32,829 bases of DNA, taken from NCBI GenBank assembly GCA_012518315.1, contig JAAYSL010000057.1, forward strand, positions 1-32,829. The letters are read 5' to 3'. Shown piece by piece: positions 12,660 to 27,711 of this stretch. The translations under genes were made by a program, and so were the position numbers. The notes below the pieces were generated by a model. The model saw only the letters and a program-made list of their open reading frames with translations. It ran no database searches and was not told where the DNA came from. The stretch's first letter is position 1. Each line of letters begins with the position of its first letter. The stretch comes from Bacillota bacterium (GTDB lineage: Bacteria > Bacillota > Limnochordia > DTU087).

Positions 12660-13403
12660 CTAGATTAGCTTTGTAGCCCTTTCTACGTCTAGAAATGCCA
12701 AAGAATCGTCCTTGAGTGACATGCATTTGGGGTGAAGATCTAGGGTCTTCTCTTGTTTGAACTCTCCGGTAGAATACCATGAGATAATGTCCCTGAATGA
12801 AGAAAATTCGTCAAAGGGAATCCCCTCCTCTTTGCATATGTCAATTAGCGCGTCCTTGGCAAACACCTGGTGTGCAACGTGGATAGGGAATCTATCGCTT
12901 GTCCCATCTCCCACATAGACTGTGTAGAATCCCCGGCGTGAGTACTGAAGGGCAATGGCAGCTTTGCATACTGCGCAGAACCTGCAGCTAGGATTATTAT
13001 GGGGAAAGGCCAGTTCAAGCTTAGGGTTAAACTGCATTGAGTTCGAGTAGACAGGAACTGCATTGATATTGGCCCGCCTCAGCAATGGGCGGATATAGGC
13101 GTCAAACCCGTCACTGACAATGGCTACTTGATCGCCTTGTCGCCTAGCTAAGTCAAGTAACGTATTGAAATCTGTATCAATATCTGCCTGCATGATCAGT
13201 TCTGCAAAGTCTTGCTGGGAAGGCGGGGCGTTACTATACCACTGTGTGTATAGATCTTTAGAGCCAGCACCACTGGTCTCTAGCTCTTCCAGGAAAGCAG
13301 GTGCTAGTCGAGGAAAGACCAGGTTATCTAGCACCAGATCGCCCACATCCTGAATACCAATAGTTCCGTCGAAATCACATAAAAAGGCAATGGGTTGTCT
13401 CAT
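12660..13403 (-). CDS. HAD-family phosphatase, MtnX/phosphoserine-phosphatase-like
   Basis: HAD hydrolase of 247 aa. Motif I is DFDGT (Asp10 nucleophile, Asp12), motif II is the Ser in AIVSDGFD and motif IV is VGDGTSD. Similarity in layout is to the MtnX group (2-hydroxy-3-keto-5-methylthiopentenyl-1-phosphate phosphatase) of subfamily IB. The insert CRFCAVCKA, with three cysteines, matches the Cys-containing segment common in that group. No other methionine-salvage gene is nearby, so MtnX function is unlikely. It is divergent from the sugar operon: its promoter (13552-13580) and the operon promoter flank a palindrome, suggesting common control and a sugar-phosphate substrate (inference). ATG 13403 has AGGAGG on the minus strand just upstream. 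Confidence 0.85.
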   Translation of the reverse strand: MRQPIAFLCDFDGTIGIQDVGDLVLDNLVFPRLAPAFLEELETSGAGSKDLYTQWYSNAPPSQQDFAELIMQADIDTDFNTLLDLARRQGDQVAIVSDGFDAYIRPLLRRANINAVPVYSNSMQFNPKLELAFPHNNPSCRFCAVCKAAIALQYSRRGFYTVYVGDGTSDRFPIHVAHQVFAKDALIDICKEEGIPFDEFSSFRDIISWYSTGEFKQEKTLDLHPKCMSLKDDSLAFLDVERATKLI

Positions 13404-13605: not shown

Positions 13606-13617
13606 TTGTCATGACAA
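13606..13617. promoter_or_regulatory. Perfect palindrome TTGTCATGACAA between divergent promoters, candidate operator
   Basis: The 12-bp perfect inverted repeat TTGTCATGACAA sits between the -35 boxes of the minus-strand promoter (ending 13580) and the plus-strand promoter (starting 13641). Its size and symmetry suit a GntR/HutC dimer, and such a regulator is encoded in the operon (16383-17108). A related palindrome is at 13746-13758. Assignment to that regulator is inference. Confidence 0.6.
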
Positions 13618-13745: not shown

Positions 13746-13758
13746 TGTCATAATGACA
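13746..13758. promoter_or_regulatory. Second palindrome TGTCATAATGACA, candidate operator in the leader
   Basis: The odd palindrome TGTCAT-A-ATGACA lies about 75 nt after the predicted start of the sugar operon transcript. It shares the half-site TGTCAT with TTGTCATGACAA at 13606-13617, with one extra base at the centre. Two related sites flanking the promoter would allow repression by roadblock or DNA looping. The regulator assignment is inferred. Confidence 0.5.
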
Positions 13759-13916: not shown

Positions 13917-15236
13917 TTGTATACACCTAGTTTTTTCGTAGATATCGGTGAGCGCCAACACAAAGGAGAAGCTGCTGGGGTGTTCTCTGTTTGTAGTTCC
14001 AACGAGTATGTCCTCAAGGCAACCATCCAACACGCCAAGGAGTGTGGGCAAATTGCCCTAATCGAAGCCACTTCGAATCAGGTTAACCAGGATGGAGGAT
14101 ACACCGGGATGACTCCGGTAGATTTCCGCAGCTATGTTGGAGACTTGGAGAGTACCTATGGGTGTAGACCGGAGCAGGTAATCTTAGGCGGGGATCATCT
14201 CGGCCCAAACCCATGGCGGCATGAGCCCGCCGAGGCAGCGATGGAGAAGGCGAAGCAGATGGTGATGGATTATGCTCGGGCAGGGATTGTCAAACTTCAT
14301 CTAGATGCCAGTATGAACCTAGGGGGTGATGGTAAGGCTCCTATACCTCCCCAATTAGTTGCCGAGAGAACTGCGGAGCTTGCCAAAGCCGCGGAGGATG
14401 CCTTTCATACCATGAAACAAGTTTCACCTGATGTATCGGCACCTGTATATGTCATTGGAACGGAAGTACCAGTACCTGGCGGAACTCAGGGTGACGATGA
14501 CACAATGCAAATAACCAACCCCGTGGATTTTGAACAGACGGTGGTTCTTACTAAGGCGGCTTTCCAAGAACGTGGGCTCAAGTCCGCGTGGGAGCGGGTT
14601 ATTGCCGTAGTTGTACAGCCTGGGGTTGAATTTGGTAACCGTTCGATACATGAGTACGACCGGGCCAAGTTTGCATTGATGAGGGAGAGCTTAAGGAAAT
14701 TTTATCCTCTAGTTTTTGAGGGGCATTCCACTGACTATCAGCGCCCTGAGAAGCTTAGAGAGCTGGTACAGGATGGTGTTGCAGTACTGAAGGTGGGACC
14801 TGAGCTTACCTTTGCCTTTAGGGAAGGCATATTCGCCCTCGAAGCCATGGAAAGAGAACTGCTTTCTAGTAAGGGAAATGTCTTGTCAATGGTGTCAGAT
14901 ACACTAGAACAAGCTATGACTGCAAATCCTGCCCATTGGCAGTCATACTATCTAGGTGATGCAGCTAGCCAAGCCTTTGATAGGCGCTTTAGTTTCTCTG
15001 ACCGATGCCGCTACTATTGGGGAGAGCCCAGAGTCAAGAAGGCAGTCAAACAGCTTTTACGCAGCTTAGCCCAACATAGGCTGCCATTAGGTCTGGTGAG
15101 TCAGTACATGCCTGTTCAATATCGAAGGATTCGGGATGGCGTGTTGCGGCCCGAACCTGAGGCACTGTTACTAGATCATATTTCTAATGTACTTCGGAAG
15201 TATGCGTGGGCAGTAGATTCGAATATGGAAGGGTGA
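13917..15236 (+). CDS. GatZ/KbaZ-family protein (tagatose-bisphosphate aldolase non-catalytic-subunit family)
   Basis: TIM-barrel protein of the GatZ/KbaZ/AgaZ family (439 aa, normal length). Family segments are GVFSVCSSNEYVLKA, ILGGDHLGPNPW (Asp93, His94), KLHLDASMNLGGD (His128, Asp130), VIGTEVPVPGG (Glu183) and VFEGHSTDYQ (His270); the metal-site-like residues are therefore kept. In enterobacteria this subunit supports the catalytic aldolase subunit GatY/KbaY. No such partner exists in this window, so it may act alone (see findings). It starts at TTG 13917 after GGGGGG (13905-13910); ATG 13913 is excluded by an immediate in-frame stop. It is the first gene of an operon with an amidohydrolase, GntR regulator, PfkB kinase and AgaS-like protein. 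The substrate is presumably a tagatose/galactosamine-type phosphate (inference). Confidence 0.88.
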   Translation: MYTPSFFVDIGERQHKGEAAGVFSVCSSNEYVLKATIQHAKECGQIALIEATSNQVNQDGGYTGMTPVDFRSYVGDLESTYGCRPEQVILGGDHLGPNPWRHEPAEAAMEKAKQMVMDYARAGIVKLHLDASMNLGGDGKAPIPPQLVAERTAELAKAAEDAFHTMKQVSPDVSAPVYVIGTEVPVPGGTQGDDDTMQITNPVDFEQTVVLTKAAFQERGLKSAWERVIAVVVQPGVEFGNRSIHEYDRAKFALMRESLRKFYPLVFEGHSTDYQRPEKLRELVQDGVAVLKVGPELTFAFREGIFALEAMERELLSSKGNVLSMVSDTLEQAMTANPAHWQSYYLGDAASQAFDRRFSFSDRCRYYWGEPRVKKAVKQLLRSLAQHRLPLGLVSQYMPVQYRRIRDGVLRPEPEALLLDHISNVLRKYAWAVDSNMEG

Positions 15237-15241
15237 AAAGA

Positions 15242-16288
15242 GTGACCTCTAAGGAAAACACCATTTGCCTACATGAGTATATGCCCCGCAGTGAATTGGT
15301 TGTCCGGCGAGAGAGTGTAGAAAAGCCGAGATTTCCAGTAATCGATTTCCATACCCATCTTGGTTCACTAACAGATGGCGAGGAATCGGAGGTAAAGCAA
15401 AGAATCACCGGTCATATTGAGGAACTTCGAGCAGTTGGTGTAGTACATGTGGTCAACCAGGAACTGCAATGTGGGAAAAAGCTTTTTGATGTTCTTGAAA
15501 TAACGGCTCCATACTCTGATTTCCTTACTAGTTTTGGTGCCGTCGATATCTCACAACTTGATGAACCGTCTTTCCCTAGTATGGTGCGAGAAAGCTTAGA
15601 GCACGGAGTCAAACTAGGTATGCGGGGGATAAAGGTCTGGAAAAATGTTAGCCTAGGGATGAAAGATAAGAGTGGCCGCTATATACCGATTGATGATCCT
15701 AGGTTAAAGCCGATATGGGAGAACGCCGCAAGACTCGGTCTGCCGGTACTGGCACATATAGCAGACCCTGTGGCTTTCTTTAGGCCGGTAGACAGATTCA
15801 ATGAACGCTTTGAGGAGTTGCAAAGGCACCCCGATTGGTCATTTTGCTCACCGGAGCTTTTTGAATTTGAGGAGCTGATGGAACAGCAAGAAAGGCTATT
15901 GGAAGGTAACCCCGATACCACGTTTATCATTGCCCATATGGGCTCGTATGCTGAGAATTTGGGCTTTGTGGGCAAATGTCTAGACAAATACCCCAATATG
16001 TATGTGGACATAGGGGCTCGTTTGGCGGAGCTTGGTCGCCAACCTTATACTGCCCGCAAGTTTTTTGAGGTGTATCAAGATAGGATATTGTTTGCAACAG
16101 ATTGCTTCCCGGGCGGGTTAGACCACCTACACTACTATGAATTCTTGGAAACTCGGAATGAGTACTTCGATTACTCTCCTTCCGAGATTCCTGGGCAAGG
16201 TCGCTGGAAGATATATGGTATCGGGTTAGATGATGAAATATTGGAGAAAGTATATAATCTTAATGCCAAGCGGCTACTGGAGCGATAG
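15242..16288 (+). CDS. Amidohydrolase-superfamily protein (Amidohydro_2-like TIM barrel)
   Basis: Metal-dependent hydrolase or lyase of the amidohydrolase-2 type, 348 aa. The N-terminal metal motif DFHTHLG (His37, His39) is followed by GIKVWKN (candidate Lys), LPVLAHIADP, FIIAHMGS and the late catalytic-Asp motif ILFATDCF. Members act as lactonases, decarboxylases or amidohydrolases; it does not resemble NagA/AgaA sugar deacetylases closely enough to call one. GTG 15242 is chosen over an upstream ATG at 15206 that overlaps the previous gene, since GGAAGGG (15227-15233) lies 8 nt before it. The 5-bp gap to the GatZ-like gene shows tight cotranscription. In this context a ring-opening or deacylating step on the incoming sugar derivative is plausible but unproven. 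Confidence 0.85.
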   Translation: MTSKENTICLHEYMPRSELVVRRESVEKPRFPVIDFHTHLGSLTDGEESEVKQRITGHIEELRAVGVVHVVNQELQCGKKLFDVLEITAPYSDFLTSFGAVDISQLDEPSFPSMVRESLEHGVKLGMRGIKVWKNVSLGMKDKSGRYIPIDDPRLKPIWENAARLGLPVLAHIADPVAFFRPVDRFNERFEELQRHPDWSFCSPELFEFEELMEQQERLLEGNPDTTFIIAHMGSYAENLGFVGKCLDKYPNMYVDIGARLAELGRQPYTARKFFEVYQDRILFATDCFPGGLDHLHYYEFLETRNEYFDYSPSEIPGQGRWKIYGIGLDDEILEKVYNLNAKRLLER

Positions 16289-16382
16289 AGCATCGCTCAG
16301 TTAGGAGCTAGACTCCCTGCCTAGTAATGAGGAAGAACAGAATAGGTTTGCTAGAGATTAAGAATGAGGAATGGTACTATTT

Positions 16383-17108
16383 ATGTGCGTTTTGGATGAG
16401 AACTCCCCTCTGGCCCTTTACTATCAGCTCAAGAGAATTCTGGAGGACAAGATAGTCTCTGGAACATGGCACGTGGGAGAGCAGATACCTACAGAAAACG
16501 AGTTGTGCGAGCTTTATGGTGTGAGCCGCATTACAGTACGGGAAGCCCTGTCTGAACTGGAGAGAGAGGGCTATATAACACGCAAGCGGGGACGGGGAAC
16601 CTTTGTCTCTATACCGAGAATCGAGCAAAACCTCATGGGCATCTATAGCTTCACTGAGGAGTTTCGCAAGCGGGGTCTTACTCCTCGTAGTGAGGTGTTG
16701 GAGTTTGTCCGTCTACTCCCGGAAAGGAGCGTCCAGGAGGTATTAGGCATTGGTGAGGGGGAGGCAGTCTATTATCTCAAAAGGTTGCGCTTCGCGGATG
16801 ATACCTTGATGGCCATTGAATCAACGTACTTGCCGTGCAGCCTCTTTCCGGAGCTATCTCAGGAGCGACTGATGGAAGCGCCCTTATACGACGTATTGCG
16901 ACGAGACTATGATTTAGTGTTGACATCTGCACAGGAGACCTTTGGGGCCGTGCTAATCCAGCCTCCCGATTCCTCGATGTTTGGGGTAAAGCCAGGAGCC
17001 CCGGGTCTTGAACTTGAGAGGTATTCATACAGGGGCAGTGCCTGCGTGGAATACACCATCGGCATGATCAGGGGGGATAAATTCCGTTTTACCGTCAAAT
17101 TGCAGTAG
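16383..17108 (+). CDS. GntR/HutC-family transcriptional regulator
   Basis: DNA-binding regulator of 241 aa. Residues 5-70 are the GntR winged helix-turn-helix (PLALYYQLKRILEDKI, PTENELCELYGVSRITVREA, GRGTFVS). Residues about 80-240 form the UTRA/HutC effector domain (FTEEFRKRGL, RLRFADDTLMAIESTYLP), which typically binds sugar phosphates or amino-sugar phosphates, as in NagR/YvoA. ATG 16383 is preferred to ATG 16371 because TGAGGA (16365-16370) abuts the latter with no spacing. It is encoded inside the sugar operon and likely controls it through the palindromes at 13606 and 13746 (inference). Confidence 0.92.
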   Translation: MCVLDENSPLALYYQLKRILEDKIVSGTWHVGEQIPTENELCELYGVSRITVREALSELEREGYITRKRGRGTFVSIPRIEQNLMGIYSFTEEFRKRGLTPRSEVLEFVRLLPERSVQEVLGIGEGEAVYYLKRLRFADDTLMAIESTYLPCSLFPELSQERLMEAPLYDVLRRDYDLVLTSAQETFGAVLIQPPDSSMFGVKPGAPGLELERYSYRGSACVEYTIGMIRGDKFRFTVKLQ

Positions 17109-18201: not shown

Positions 18202-19377
18202 GTGTTTTATTCACTAAATCAGCTTGGCGAGTTGGATGACGCCACAAAGAAAGAACGGGGATTACTCTATACCCCCATGGAGATAGTAAGGCAGCCACAA
18301 GTCTGGCTTGAAACGAAGAACATGATGAAACAGCATATAGGGGAAATAGGAAGGCTTATCTCAGGGGATGAGACTATCATCCTAACGGGAGCAGGTAGCT
18401 CATATTTCGCTGGTCAGTGTGTGGAAGCGGCCCTGGCTGCTCGGCATAAAGGCATAGTCAAGAGCATCTCATCGACTGAGATTGTCATGGATCCAGAGGG
18501 CACATTGCCACACACTCCTTTTACTCTCGTATCCTTTGCCAGGTCCGGTAACAGCCCCGAGGGGAATGCTGCTTTCGAGCTAGCGGAGGCTCTCAGGCCC
18601 GGTCTAGTAACACAAGTGGTGTTTACCTGTAGTAACGAAGGGGAACTGGCGAGGTTAGCAAGGCAAAGTCAGGCTCCGGGGCTCTTGTGTGTACTGCCAC
18701 CTGATACCAATGATGCTGGGCTGGCCATGACTAGTTCCTTTACCAGTATGGTTGTGGCGGGGTATGGTCTGGCCTACGGAGGGGCCCTCTCTCAATATGA
18801 AGCGATGGTTGGCGATCTAGCAAGGGCGGCAAAGAAGCTTCTAGAAGACCACAGTGAGACCCTCAAAAGCATTGCGGAAATACCCTTTGACCGTATCTTC
18901 TTCGTTGGTGCGCATCCCTTTTATGGAGCTGCCCTAGAATCACACCTGAAAGTTCAGGAGATGACCGATGGGCAGGTGGTTGGTAAGGCCGAGGATACAT
19001 TGGGCTTACGCCATGGACCCATGGCGGCCATTGATGAGAAAACCCTGGTAGTTCTGTTCGCATCGCTGGACACCTATCGGCGTAAATATGAGACAGATCT
19101 ACTCAAAGAACTATCTGCCAAAGAGTTAGGTTGCCAACGGGTGGTTGTCTCGCCACAGCCGGAGTCGGGCTGGACAGACCTTTGCCACCACATACTGGAT
19201 TTTGGTGCGGATCTTGACTTGGCCAATGACATACTGTCACCGGTATTGGTCATTCCGGCCCAGCTCATCGGATTGTTCAAGAGCCTTGAACTGGGTTTGA
19301 TGCCCGATACCCCTAGCCGCAAACAGGTGATTACGAGGGTCGTAGAGGGAGTGACTATCTACCCTTACTCCGACTAG
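18202..19377 (+). CDS. AgaS-like SIS-domain protein (putative galactosamine-6-phosphate deaminase/isomerase)
   Basis: Double-SIS protein of 391 aa, the length of AgaS. The first SIS domain (about 40-200) has IILTGAGSSYFAGQCVE and the phosphosugar-binding SFARSGNSPEG segment. The second (about 215-385) has FFVGAHPFYGAALESHLKVQEMTDGQ and LRHGPMAAID. AgaS converts galactosamine-6-phosphate to tagatose-6-phosphate plus ammonia in GalNAc pathways. GTG 18202 has AGGGAGG (18186-18192) 9 nt upstream. As the last gene of the sugar cluster it supplies the strongest hint that the substrate is an amino sugar. The tandem repeats at 18144-18177 lie in its 5' flank. The specific substrate is not proven. Confidence 0.87.
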   Translation: MFYSLNQLGELDDATKKERGLLYTPMEIVRQPQVWLETKNMMKQHIGEIGRLISGDETIILTGAGSSYFAGQCVEAALAARHKGIVKSISSTEIVMDPEGTLPHTPFTLVSFARSGNSPEGNAAFELAEALRPGLVTQVVFTCSNEGELARLARQSQAPGLLCVLPPDTNDAGLAMTSSFTSMVVAGYGLAYGGALSQYEAMVGDLARAAKKLLEDHSETLKSIAEIPFDRIFFVGAHPFYGAALESHLKVQEMTDGQVVGKAEDTLGLRHGPMAAIDEKTLVVLFASLDTYRRKYETDLLKELSAKELGCQRVVVSPQPESGWTDLCHHILDFGADLDLANDILSPVLVIPAQLIGLFKSLELGLMPDTPSRKQVITRVVEGVTIYPYSD

Positions 19378-26743: not shown

Positions 26744-27095
26744 TGGTGGAGGTGAGCGGAGTTGCACCGCTGTCCACAAATGAAGCCACAATGACTTCTA
26801 CGAGCGTAGCCCTTGTTTGACATTCGCTTCTATCTAGCCCCAAGGGCAGGGCTAGACGGAAACTAGCTCATTAGGTTTCCCCTTCTAGTTATGAGCATCC
26901 CCGGAAGGGTATCCCGCAGTATGACACTCTATCCTATCCGGCAGGAACAGAAAGGTAGAGCGTAGCTGCTATTAAGCAGCAGCTAGAGCGTAATTATCGT
27001 TTGCGTTTAGTTTAAGTTCCCACTGTTTAGCGAGGCATGGGACCTCGGCTCGCTTCCATTGCCACTCTCATCTGTGTCGAACCTAATTCACCCCC
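26744..27095 (-). ncRNA. ssrA: Transfer-messenger RNA (tmRNA)
   Basis: One-piece tmRNA of about 352 nt that rescues stalled ribosomes with SmpB. The minus-strand 5' end GGGGGTG pairs with CACCTCC just before the encoded ACCA 3' end (7-bp acceptor stem). The 5' part holds GGTTCGACA, and the 3' part a T-arm GACAGCGGTGCAACTCCGCT. The tag frame runs from GCA (27004) to TAA (26972) and encodes ANDNYALAAA, a typical degradation tag ending in the hydrophobic Ala tail. It lies 37 nt after smpB on the same strand, so it may be cotranscribed and processed by RNase P, although a weak promoter upstream cannot be excluded. Confidence 0.96.
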
Positions 27096-27132: not shown

Positions 27133-27594
27133 CTACTGGTTTTGCTCCTTTAAGATGCGGTCAATTCGCCGCTTCTCATCTCTTCTGGCGATGGCTTCTC
27201 GTTTATCATATAGCTTCTTGCCTTTGGCAAGTGCCAGTTCAATTTTGGCCTTGCCCCGCCGAAAATATACCTTAAGTGGTATGAGTGTATAGCCCCTCTC
27301 CTGGGTCTGCCCAAGTAGGCGCATGATCTCCCGCTTGTGCATTAGGAGCTTCCTAGTGCGCTTTGGCTCATGGTTAAACATATTGCCATGAGTATAGGGG
27401 CTGATATGCATATTATATAAGAAAAGTTCGCCATTTTCAACTACAGCATAGGAGTCTCTTAGGTTAGCCCGCCCCAGGCGTAAGGATTTGACTTCCGTAC
27501 CTGTTAGGGCAATCCCTGCTTCGAATGTCTCCTCGATGTGGTAGTCATGGCGGGCTTTTCGGTTTTCTGCAATGATCTTGATTCCCTCTGCCAC
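27133..27594 (-). CDS. smpB: SsrA-binding protein SmpB
   Basis: Binds tmRNA and places it in the ribosome for trans-translation; 153 aa. Hallmarks are [39 protein letters not shown] and LYNMHISPY; the C-terminal tail [19 protein letters not shown], which enters the mRNA channel, is intact. GTG 27594 is chosen since GGAGGG lies about 7 nt upstream and the longer open frame (to 27681) adds 29 residues without family similarity. ssrA follows on the same strand. Confidence 0.96.
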
Positions 27595-27624
27595 GGTCTT
27601 TCCCTCCGGCTTTCTAGTCCCAGG

Positions 27625-27654
27625 ATAATAATACCCTACCGGGTTGACAGGCAA
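27625..27654 (-). promoter_or_regulatory. Proximal smpB promoter candidate
   Basis: Minus strand: TTGCCT (27654-27649), an 18-bp spacer and TATTAT (27630-27625). Transcription would start near 27618, about 25 nt before the GTG start of smpB. Confidence 0.5.
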
Positions 27655-27711
27655 ACTCCAGAAGGGTTGGTAAGTGAACACAGGGATAGAAACTGCCTCG
27701 ATTGCACCTAT

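What the first reader, a model, noticed from the sequence alone, without database searches (positions are those of the whole stretch)
13917..15236. Stand-alone GatZ/KbaZ protein may have its own activity, such as a C4 epimerase
GatZ/KbaZ is described as a non-catalytic helper of the GatY/KbaY aldolase, yet no partner is encoded here and the metal-site-like residues (Asp93/His94, His128/Asp130, Glu183, His270) are intact. From memory, some proteins annotated in this family were later reported to epimerise ketoses or ketose phosphates at C4. If so, tagatose-6-phosphate from AgaS could be turned into fructose-6-phosphate directly, making the aldolase unnecessary.
Basis: partly seen in the sequence, partly recalled or inferred. 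Interest (0 to 1): 0.5.

Follow-up and report, generated by a model that had tools for sequence, protein, structure and literature searches.

The report
GatZ-family sugar-phosphate C4 epimerase
A protein usually labelled an inactive aldolase helper is most likely a working enzyme that turns tagatose-6-phosphate straight into fructose-6-phosphate in an amino-sugar degradation cluster, an activity already reported for its relatives, so the idea is right but not new.

Summary
The ORF at 13917-15236 is a full-length GatZ/KbaZ protein. No class II aldolase is encoded in the window. Its genome has this single GatZ and five class II aldolases elsewhere; none passes the tagatose-bisphosphate-aldolase cut-offs. 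Context fits too. A sister genus carries only GntR-GatZ-AgaS in the same chromosomal slot, and some related loci without GatZ have a class II aldolase instead. So this is a new member of a known kind; the activity of this protein itself is untested. The less expected finding is the next gene: an Amidohydro_2 protein that recurs beside GatZ, AgaS-type SIS proteins, PfkB kinases and, in three loci, a GH4 alpha-galactosidase, in at least three phyla. Its role is unassigned; I suggest it hydrolyses a galactosamine derivative, giving an alpha-galactosaminide pathway that ends in F6P through GatZ.

The parts
13917..15236 (+). GatZ/KbaZ-family protein, predicted D-tagatose-6-phosphate 4-epimerase; predicted metal and acid-base residues D93, H94, E183, H270, with C26, E50, K292
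   Evidence: PF08013 562 bits; residue mapping to E. coli GatZ; AF2 model pLDDT 91.5, VIA Z 54 to 2fiq and 52 to 3txv
15242..16288 (+). Amidohydro_2 metal-dependent hydrolase (AmiH). Listed ORF start is GTG 15206, overlapping gatZ; GTG 15242, five bases after the gatZ stop, is the likelier start. Function unassigned
   Evidence: PF04909 78.8 bits against 26.4; putative metal ligands H49, H51, H184, H244, D299 (numbered from GTG 15206) kept in every row that covers them, 7 or 8 of 8; neighbour of GatZ/SIS/PfkB in several phyla
16371..17108 (+). GntR/UTRA (HutC-type) transcriptional regulator
   Evidence: PF00392 and PF07702
17178..18131 (+). PfkB-family sugar kinase; amino-sugar, tagatose or tagatose-6-phosphate kinase not decided
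   Evidence: PF00294 172.8 bits; best NCBIfam model TagKinase 147.7 bits, below its cut-off of 420
18202..19377 (+). AgaS-type SIS protein, predicted galactosamine-6-phosphate deaminase/isomerase giving tagatose-6-phosphate
   Evidence: TIGR02815 275.7 bits, below its cut-off of 529.2; best PDB matches 3odp, 3i0z, 3c3j
12660..13403 (-). divergent MtnX-like HAD-IB phosphatase; link to the cluster uncertain
   Evidence: PF12710; TIGR01488 57.8 bits over its cut-off of 45; a 67.6% identical copy lies near AgaS in L172
13606..13617 (.). palindrome TTGTCATGACAA, candidate GntR operator upstream of gatZ
   Evidence: one match, 0.07 expected; exact copy upstream of the SIS-GH4-GatZ-AmiH operon in L095
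13641..13669 (+). sigma-70-like promoter TTGCCA-17-TATAAT (11 of 12)
   Evidence: consensus match only; the region has no more such sites than shuffles

Best explanation
The protein is a metal-dependent (probably Zn) D-tagatose-6-phosphate 4-epimerase of the GatZ/KbaZ family working without a GatY partner. Proposed mechanism, taken from the published E. coli GatZ model: metal held by H94, E183 and H270; D93 deprotonates the C4 hydroxyl; the C3-C4 bond opens by retro-aldol cleavage and re-closes with inverted C4. In the cluster, AgaS deaminates and isomerises galactosamine-6-phosphate to tagatose-6-phosphate and GatZ turns it into fructose-6-phosphate, so no tagatose-1,6-bisphosphate aldolase is required. 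Shown here: family membership, conserved active site, predicted fold, gene context and the exchange of GatZ for an aldolase in some relatives. Inferred: activity of this protein, its substrate, the roles of PfkB and AmiH, and metal identity.
For: Family and fold: PF08013 562 bits; AF2 pLDDT 91.5; VIA Z 54.3 to 2fiq and 52.5 to 3txv (S. meliloti), then the Thermotogota tagatose 4-epimerase 9lhw (Z 25.1, 325 aligned) and UxaE epimerase 6il9 (Z 25.0, 323), tied in Z with class II aldolases (about 24.5, about 266 aligned). Residues: C26, E50, D93, H94, E183, H270, K292 equal E. coli GatZ C20, E44, D87, H88, E171, H257, K279. Literature: PMC11907403. Context: no class II aldolase in the window; no genomic aldolase over a GatY/TBP-aldolase cut-off; no LacD match. 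The same slot in a sister genus, flanks 69-89% identical, holds only GntR-GatZ-AgaS. Among 60 related genomes AgaS (10) and GatZ (17) coincide in 7, 2.8 expected. A class II aldolase stands near AgaS in 2 of 3 AgaS genomes without GatZ and in 0 of 7 with GatZ; G011, without GatZ, has AmiH-AmiH-FBA-PfkB-SIS. Only 12 of 80 GatZ loci have a class II aldolase within 5 kb on the same strand. Sinorhizobium and Rhizobium GatZ loci pair with a PfkB kinase and lack an aldolase in the stretch fetched.
Against: No assay. Five class II aldolases exist elsewhere in the genome and one could be a partner. The PfkB neighbour could be a tagatose-6-phosphate kinase feeding an aldolase. The conserved residues occur equally in E. 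coli GatZ/KbaZ, reported to boost GatY/KbaY activity, so they do not discriminate. Some clusters hold both GatZ and an aldolase (for example L091, L105, L127). AgaS and PfkB score below the curated cut-offs for named functions. The AgaS/GatZ coincidence ignores kinship among genomes, the aldolase contrast is small (Fisher p 0.067), and several AgaS contigs are short.
Confidence: 0.78

Rival explanations
1. Classical helper: the protein stabilises or activates a class II tagatose-1,6-bisphosphate aldolase encoded elsewhere, with PfkB as the tagatose-6-phosphate kinase.
For: E. [quoted passage not shown] coli GatY/KbaY are weak without GatZ/KbaZ; five class II aldolases in the genome; a PfkB kinase in the cluster; FBA-PfkB-GatZ clusters in Leptolinea (L091, L098, L120).
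Against: None of the five aldolases passes a TBP-aldolase/GatY cut-off and none is on the window contig; PfkB scores 26.9 bits with LacC against a cut-off of 409.55; the sister-genus cluster GntR-GatZ-AgaS has neither kinase nor aldolase; E. coli GatZ and KbaZ themselves epimerise in vivo (PMC11907403).
Confidence: 0.12
2. A C4 epimerase acting on another ketose or ketose phosphate (free tagatose/fructose, tagatose-1-phosphate, or a related sugar) rather than tagatose-6-phosphate.
For: Fold tie with a tagatose 4-epimerase and UxaE (that they act on unphosphorylated sugars is recalled); GatZ also occurs in FGGY-kinase/dehydrogenase and PfkB contexts, so substrates may vary; at most 53% identity to members outside its own four-member clade in the alignments made.
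Against: SIS partners of the GlmD/AgaS kind act on phosphosugars (family knowledge); characterised relatives named in PMC11907403 use T6P/F6P.
Confidence: 0.08
3. A tagatose-6-phosphate kinase, as the PDB titles of 2fiq and 3txv and older notes say.
For: PDB molecule names; a note that AgaZ was proposed to be a Tag6P kinase (PMC12118421 passages).
Against: Fold is that of class II aldolases and 4-epimerases, not of a kinase; a separate PfkB kinase is in the cluster.
Confidence: 0.02

Closest known systems
E. coli GatZ and KbaZ (F6P/T6P C4 epimerase activity, PMC11907403)
   Same: Same family over the full length; all proposed catalytic residues conserved; KbaZ is likewise in a cluster with AgaS.
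   Different: E. coli clusters also encode GatY/KbaY; the window has no aldolase but an amidohydrolase and a PfkB kinase.
Sinorhizobium/Agrobacterium GatZ of galactitol/tagatose catabolism (cited in PMC11907403; not read)
   Same: 3txv (S. meliloti) is the best PDB sequence match, 374.8 bits; PfkB kinase next to GatZ and no aldolase in the S. medicae and R. daejeonense stretches.
   Different: There the tagatose-6-phosphate would come from tagatose and a kinase; here AgaS suggests galactosamine-6-phosphate as the source.
Caldilinea aerophila fructose-6-phosphate 4-epimerase (Dai 2020, cited in PMC11907403; not read)
   Same: Reported F6P 4-epimerase; that it belongs to this family is recalled.
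   Different: No sequence compared here.
Class II fructose-1,6-bisphosphate aldolase with side 4-epimerase activity (FbaA, PMC5434028, abstract read)
   Same: Same fold superfamily; class II aldolases are reported to do 4-epimerisation of F6P.
   Different: Metal site of three His instead of His/His/Glu, and a C3-OH Asp/Gln pair that GatZ lacks (PMC11907403, section 14).
UxaE / tagatose 4-epimerase
   Same: Nearest non-GatZ structures by VIA Z, tied with aldolases.
   Different: 8-10% identity; act on unphosphorylated sugars or uronates (recalled).

Membership tests
GatZ/KbaZ family (PF08013) | full-length match over the Pfam cut-off | tested here: met
   562 bits, residues 9-433, profile 3-419 of 420
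NCBIfam equivalog TIGR02810 (non-catalytic subunit) | score over the curated cut-off | tested here: not met
   516.4 bits against 568.8; also under the KbaZ and GatZ equivalogs NF012002 and NF011626. It is a member of the Pfam family, not of these named equivalogs.
T6P/F6P 4-epimerase as proposed for E. coli GatZ | catalytic and metal residues D87, H88, E171, H257 and C20, E44, K279 | tested here: met
   all seven conserved in the window protein
T6P/F6P 4-epimerase as proposed for E. coli GatZ | measured T6P/F6P interconversion | not testable with these tools
   needs an assay
Two-subunit class II TBP aldolase (GatYZ/KbaYZ) | GatY/KbaY partner in the same cluster | tested here: not met
   six-frame scan of the window with a GatY/FBA profile found none
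Two-subunit class II TBP aldolase (GatYZ/KbaYZ) | GatY/KbaY-type aldolase anywhere in the genome | tested here: inconclusive
   five class II aldolases; best TIGR01858 scores 345.3 and 333.4 against 443.55; assembly 97.65% complete
AgaS galactosamine-6-phosphate deaminase/isomerase (neighbour gene) | TIGR02815 AgaS over cut-off | tested here: not met
   275.7 bits against 529.2; the three best PDB matches are AgaS-type proteins
Tagatose kinase NF049991 (neighbour gene PfkB) | score over cut-off | tested here: not met
   147.7 bits against 420

The most novel reading that the evidence does not exclude
The cluster is an undescribed alpha-galactosaminide pathway: ABC uptake, GH4 glycosidase, a new Amidohydro_2 enzyme (AmiH) that removes an acyl or other N- or O-linked group from a galactosamine derivative, a PfkB or BadF-type kinase, an AgaS/GlmD-like deaminase and, as the last step, GatZ as obligate C4 epimerase delivering fructose-6-phosphate without any tagatose-bisphosphate step. 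AmiH would be a sugar-pathway amidase from the Amidohydro_2 decarboxylase/lactonase branch.
Probability: 0.3. Interest if true: 0.5.

Novelty: new member of a known kind. Interest (0 to 1): 0.3.

Why it matters
The standard label 'non-catalytic subunit' (TIGR02810) hides an enzyme. Where GatZ stands alone, pathway reconstructions that demand a tagatose-6-phosphate kinase and a TBP aldolase will wrongly call the route broken. Stand-alone members are also possible sources of epimerases for tagatose production. The conserved GatZ-AmiH partnership gives a testable lead to an unassigned amidohydrolase.

Tried and rejected
Searched for a partner aldolase: none in the window; five in the genome, none over a GatY/TBP-aldolase cut-off. 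LacD search negative in the own genome. LacC was judged only from the PfkB neighbour's weak score (26.9 bits). A genome-wide PfkB search gave 10 matches, which I did not classify.

AmiH as a replacement for GalNAc-6-phosphate deacetylase: not forced, because the genome has a NagA over its cut-off. Sequence search of AmiH against PDB gave nothing useful. The AF2 model (pLDDT 80, 8 sequences) matches uncharacterised amidohydrolases, dihydroxybenzoate and related decarboxylases, and LigJ/pyrone-dicarboxylate hydrolase types, all within a narrow Z range, so fold alone does not give the reaction. Class II aldolases and UxaE are tied for GatZ in Z, so the fold does not choose between epimerase and aldolase.

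Tree of 103 GatZ rows (quick method, support SH-aLRT): the window sits in a four-row clade (100) inside a 17-row clade with support of only 80; 0 of the 17 rows have an aldolase within 5 kb on the same strand. E. coli GatZ/KbaZ and rhizobial GatZ lie in the other half. Because both E. coli 'helpers' and rhizobial 'epimerases' share that half, phylogeny does not separate helper from epimerase. One divergent row (L050) was left out of the tree; the truncated hit of L022/L048 was not among the rows. Of the 80, only 37 have at least 4 kb on both sides; in those, 3 of 37 have a class II aldolase within 4 kb.

Papers: Wichelecki 2015 is not held; Kohlmeier 2019 and Dai 2020 were not looked up. No listing title or abstract start from these named an Amidohydro_2 protein in a tagatose or galactosamine pathway; PMC5583593 (one 'amidohydrolase' mention in its text) was not opened. 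For PMC4694137, PMC5018945 and PMC5583593 I saw only search listings; for PMC12324327 only passages.

Full report
What is there. The ORF at 13917-15236 (+) encodes 439 aa from a TTG start. It matches Pfam GatZ_KbaZ-like over its whole length (562 bits). NCBIfam's TIGR02810, 'non-catalytic subunit', scores 516.4 bits, under its curated cut-off of 568.8. It is the only member in its genome (2.72 Mb, 281 contigs, 97.65% complete).

The residues. On an alignment of 104 GatZ proteins, D93, H94, H128, D130 and H270 are invariant; E183 is E in 101 and D in 3. E. coli GatZ residues proposed for catalysis in PMC11907403 (D87, H88, E171, H257; also C20, E44, K279) correspond to D93, H94, E183, H270, C26, E50 and K292 here. 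Since E. coli GatZ and KbaZ, long called helpers, have the same set, the residues show a competent site but do not by themselves prove stand-alone use.

What is known. PMC11907403 (abstract, passages, section 14 and references seen) reports that deletion of gatZ abolished tagatose formation in an engineered E. coli, that gatZ or kbaZ with the phosphatase gene hxpA restored it, and that fbaA, gatY or kbaY did not. It cites related conversions for Agrobacterium, Sinorhizobium and Caldilinea proteins, which I did not read.

Fold. AF2 of the window protein with 27 relatives gave pLDDT 91.5, pTM 0.91. Foldseek and VIA find E. coli GatZ 2fiq (Z 54.3) and S. meliloti 3txv (Z 52.5). Next come the Thermotogota tagatose 4-epimerase 9lhw (Z 25.1, 325 aligned), UxaE 6il9 (Z 25.0, 323 aligned) and class II aldolases (Z about 24.5, about 266 aligned). 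Differences under 1 Z are ties, so the fold agrees with either chemistry.

Neighbourhood of the window. Order: HAD-IB phosphatase (-), gatZ, amidohydrolase (AmiH), GntR regulator, PfkB kinase, AgaS-type SIS protein. The cluster lies between a DgkA/LysM-peptidase-like stretch (named by eye) and the Era, QueA and Tgt genes. A likely AmiH start at 15242 lies five bases after the gatZ stop (read). No class II aldolase is in the window. Five are elsewhere; against the TBP-aldolase model TIGR01858 (cut-off 443.55) the best two score 345.3 and 333.4.

Swap evidence. In genome G001 of a sister genus the same slot, with flanking genes 69-89% identical, carries only GntR-GatZ-AgaS (AgaS 74% identical): the minimal set for GalN6P to T6P to F6P. 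Of 60 related genomes, 17 have GatZ and 10 have AgaS. Seven have both, 2.8 expected, hypergeometric p 0.0035 without kinship correction. Of the three AgaS genomes without GatZ, two (G028, G031) have a class II aldolase near AgaS (on the opposite strand in G028) and one (G022) does not; none of the seven with GatZ does, though several of their contigs are short (Fisher p 0.067). G011, which has no GatZ, carries AmiH-AmiH-FBA(-)-PfkB-SIS. So GatZ and aldolase look like alternative ends of one pathway. Against this, both occur together in some loci (L091, L098, L105, L120, L127, L132 and others), and 12 of 80 GatZ loci have an aldolase within 5 kb on the same strand.

The amidohydrolase partner. 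AmiH follows GatZ in the window, L019, L047, L049, L041 (two copies) and L095 (two copies), all Bacillota or close relatives of the window. It also occurs in Chloroflexota loci L069 and L091 and Acidobacteriota L088 and L124; a weak match occurs in Spirochaetota L075 (136 bits). G010 has AmiH-AmiH-PfkB-AgaS, 79-85% identical to the window genes apart from a 41% identical second AmiH, without GatZ on that contig. In a draw of 398 genomes of the phylum, 10 had a match at E up to 1e-20, but only G000, G011 and G069 exceeded 200 bits. A GH4 glycosidase over the alpha-galactosidase cut-off (486) stands in the GatZ-AmiH clusters of L041 (509.6), L049 (521.1) and L095 (521.0), with ABC sugar transporter genes. 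This points to a galacto-configured sugar. SIS partners of the GlmD/AgaS kind and BadF-type kinases beside AgaS in L166 and L172, and near it in L168 (that this family includes amino-sugar kinases is recalled), point to an amino sugar. Together: a galactosamine derivative. AmiH keeps the HxH, H, H, D pattern (the pattern as metal ligands is recalled), but its reaction is unknown.

Regulation. The palindrome TTGTCATGACAA lies at 13606-13617 upstream of gatZ (0.07 expected). An exact copy lies between gntR and the SIS-GH4-GatZ-AmiH-AmiH genes of L095 (0.03 expected). L047 has four matches with up to two mismatches, two of them flanking its gntR gene (0 of 200 shuffles). L049 has two, one upstream of its solute-binding-protein gene (12 of 200 shuffles). 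L041 has one at chance level and L043 none. It may be the GntR operator.

Mechanism, likelihood and limits. I hold the T6P 4-epimerase reading at 0.78. Shown: family, residues, predicted fold and context. Inferred: activity, substrate, metal, and the roles of PfkB and AmiH. The main rival is a helper role in trans (0.12).

Verdict. Ordinary in kind and right in substance: a stand-alone member of an epimerase family that is still mis-named. The amidohydrolase partnership is the part a specialist would not have expected.

Noticed in passing
window 15242-16288; L019, L041, L047, L049, L095, L069, L091, L088, L124, L165, L149: An Amidohydro_2 protein recurs with GatZ, SIS (AgaS/GlmD-like) and PfkB genes in Bacillota, Chloroflexota and Acidobacteriota, sometimes in tandem pairs; no function is assigned.
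   Followed up: partly
window 13606-13617 and 13746-13758; L095 5462-5473; L047 2839, 3624: Palindromes TTGTCATGACAA and TGTCATAATGACA upstream of gatZ; the first recurs at related clusters and may be the GntR operator.
   Followed up: partly
L050 7551-8831 (G001:C319): A divergent GatZ-like protein (24% identity, 48.6 bits to PF08013) that keeps the Asp-His pair but lacks the Cys, Glu and Lys of the proposed site; a class II aldolase gene lies about 6 kb away.
   Followed up: no
L005 17-1453 (G000:C224): The window's genome encodes an ADP-dependent phosphofructokinase/glucokinase family protein (PF04587, 195 bits) right before a class II aldolase, unusual for a bacterium as far as I recall.
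   Followed up: partly
L035, L036, L037, L039, L040, L042, L045: A different GatZ context in related genomes: FGGY kinase, zinc alcohol dehydrogenase, GatZ, which would suit galactitol-to-tagatose catabolism ending in the same epimerase.
   Followed up: partly
L172 6947-7982 (G007:C145): An AgaS gene that appears in two overlapping pieces in different frames, next to a BadF-type kinase and the HAD phosphatase; broken gene or assembly error.
   Followed up: no
window 26744-27095 (-) and 27133-27681 (-): tmRNA gene (Rfam RF00023, 185.6 bits) beside an ORF that looks like SmpB (by eye).
   Followed up: no
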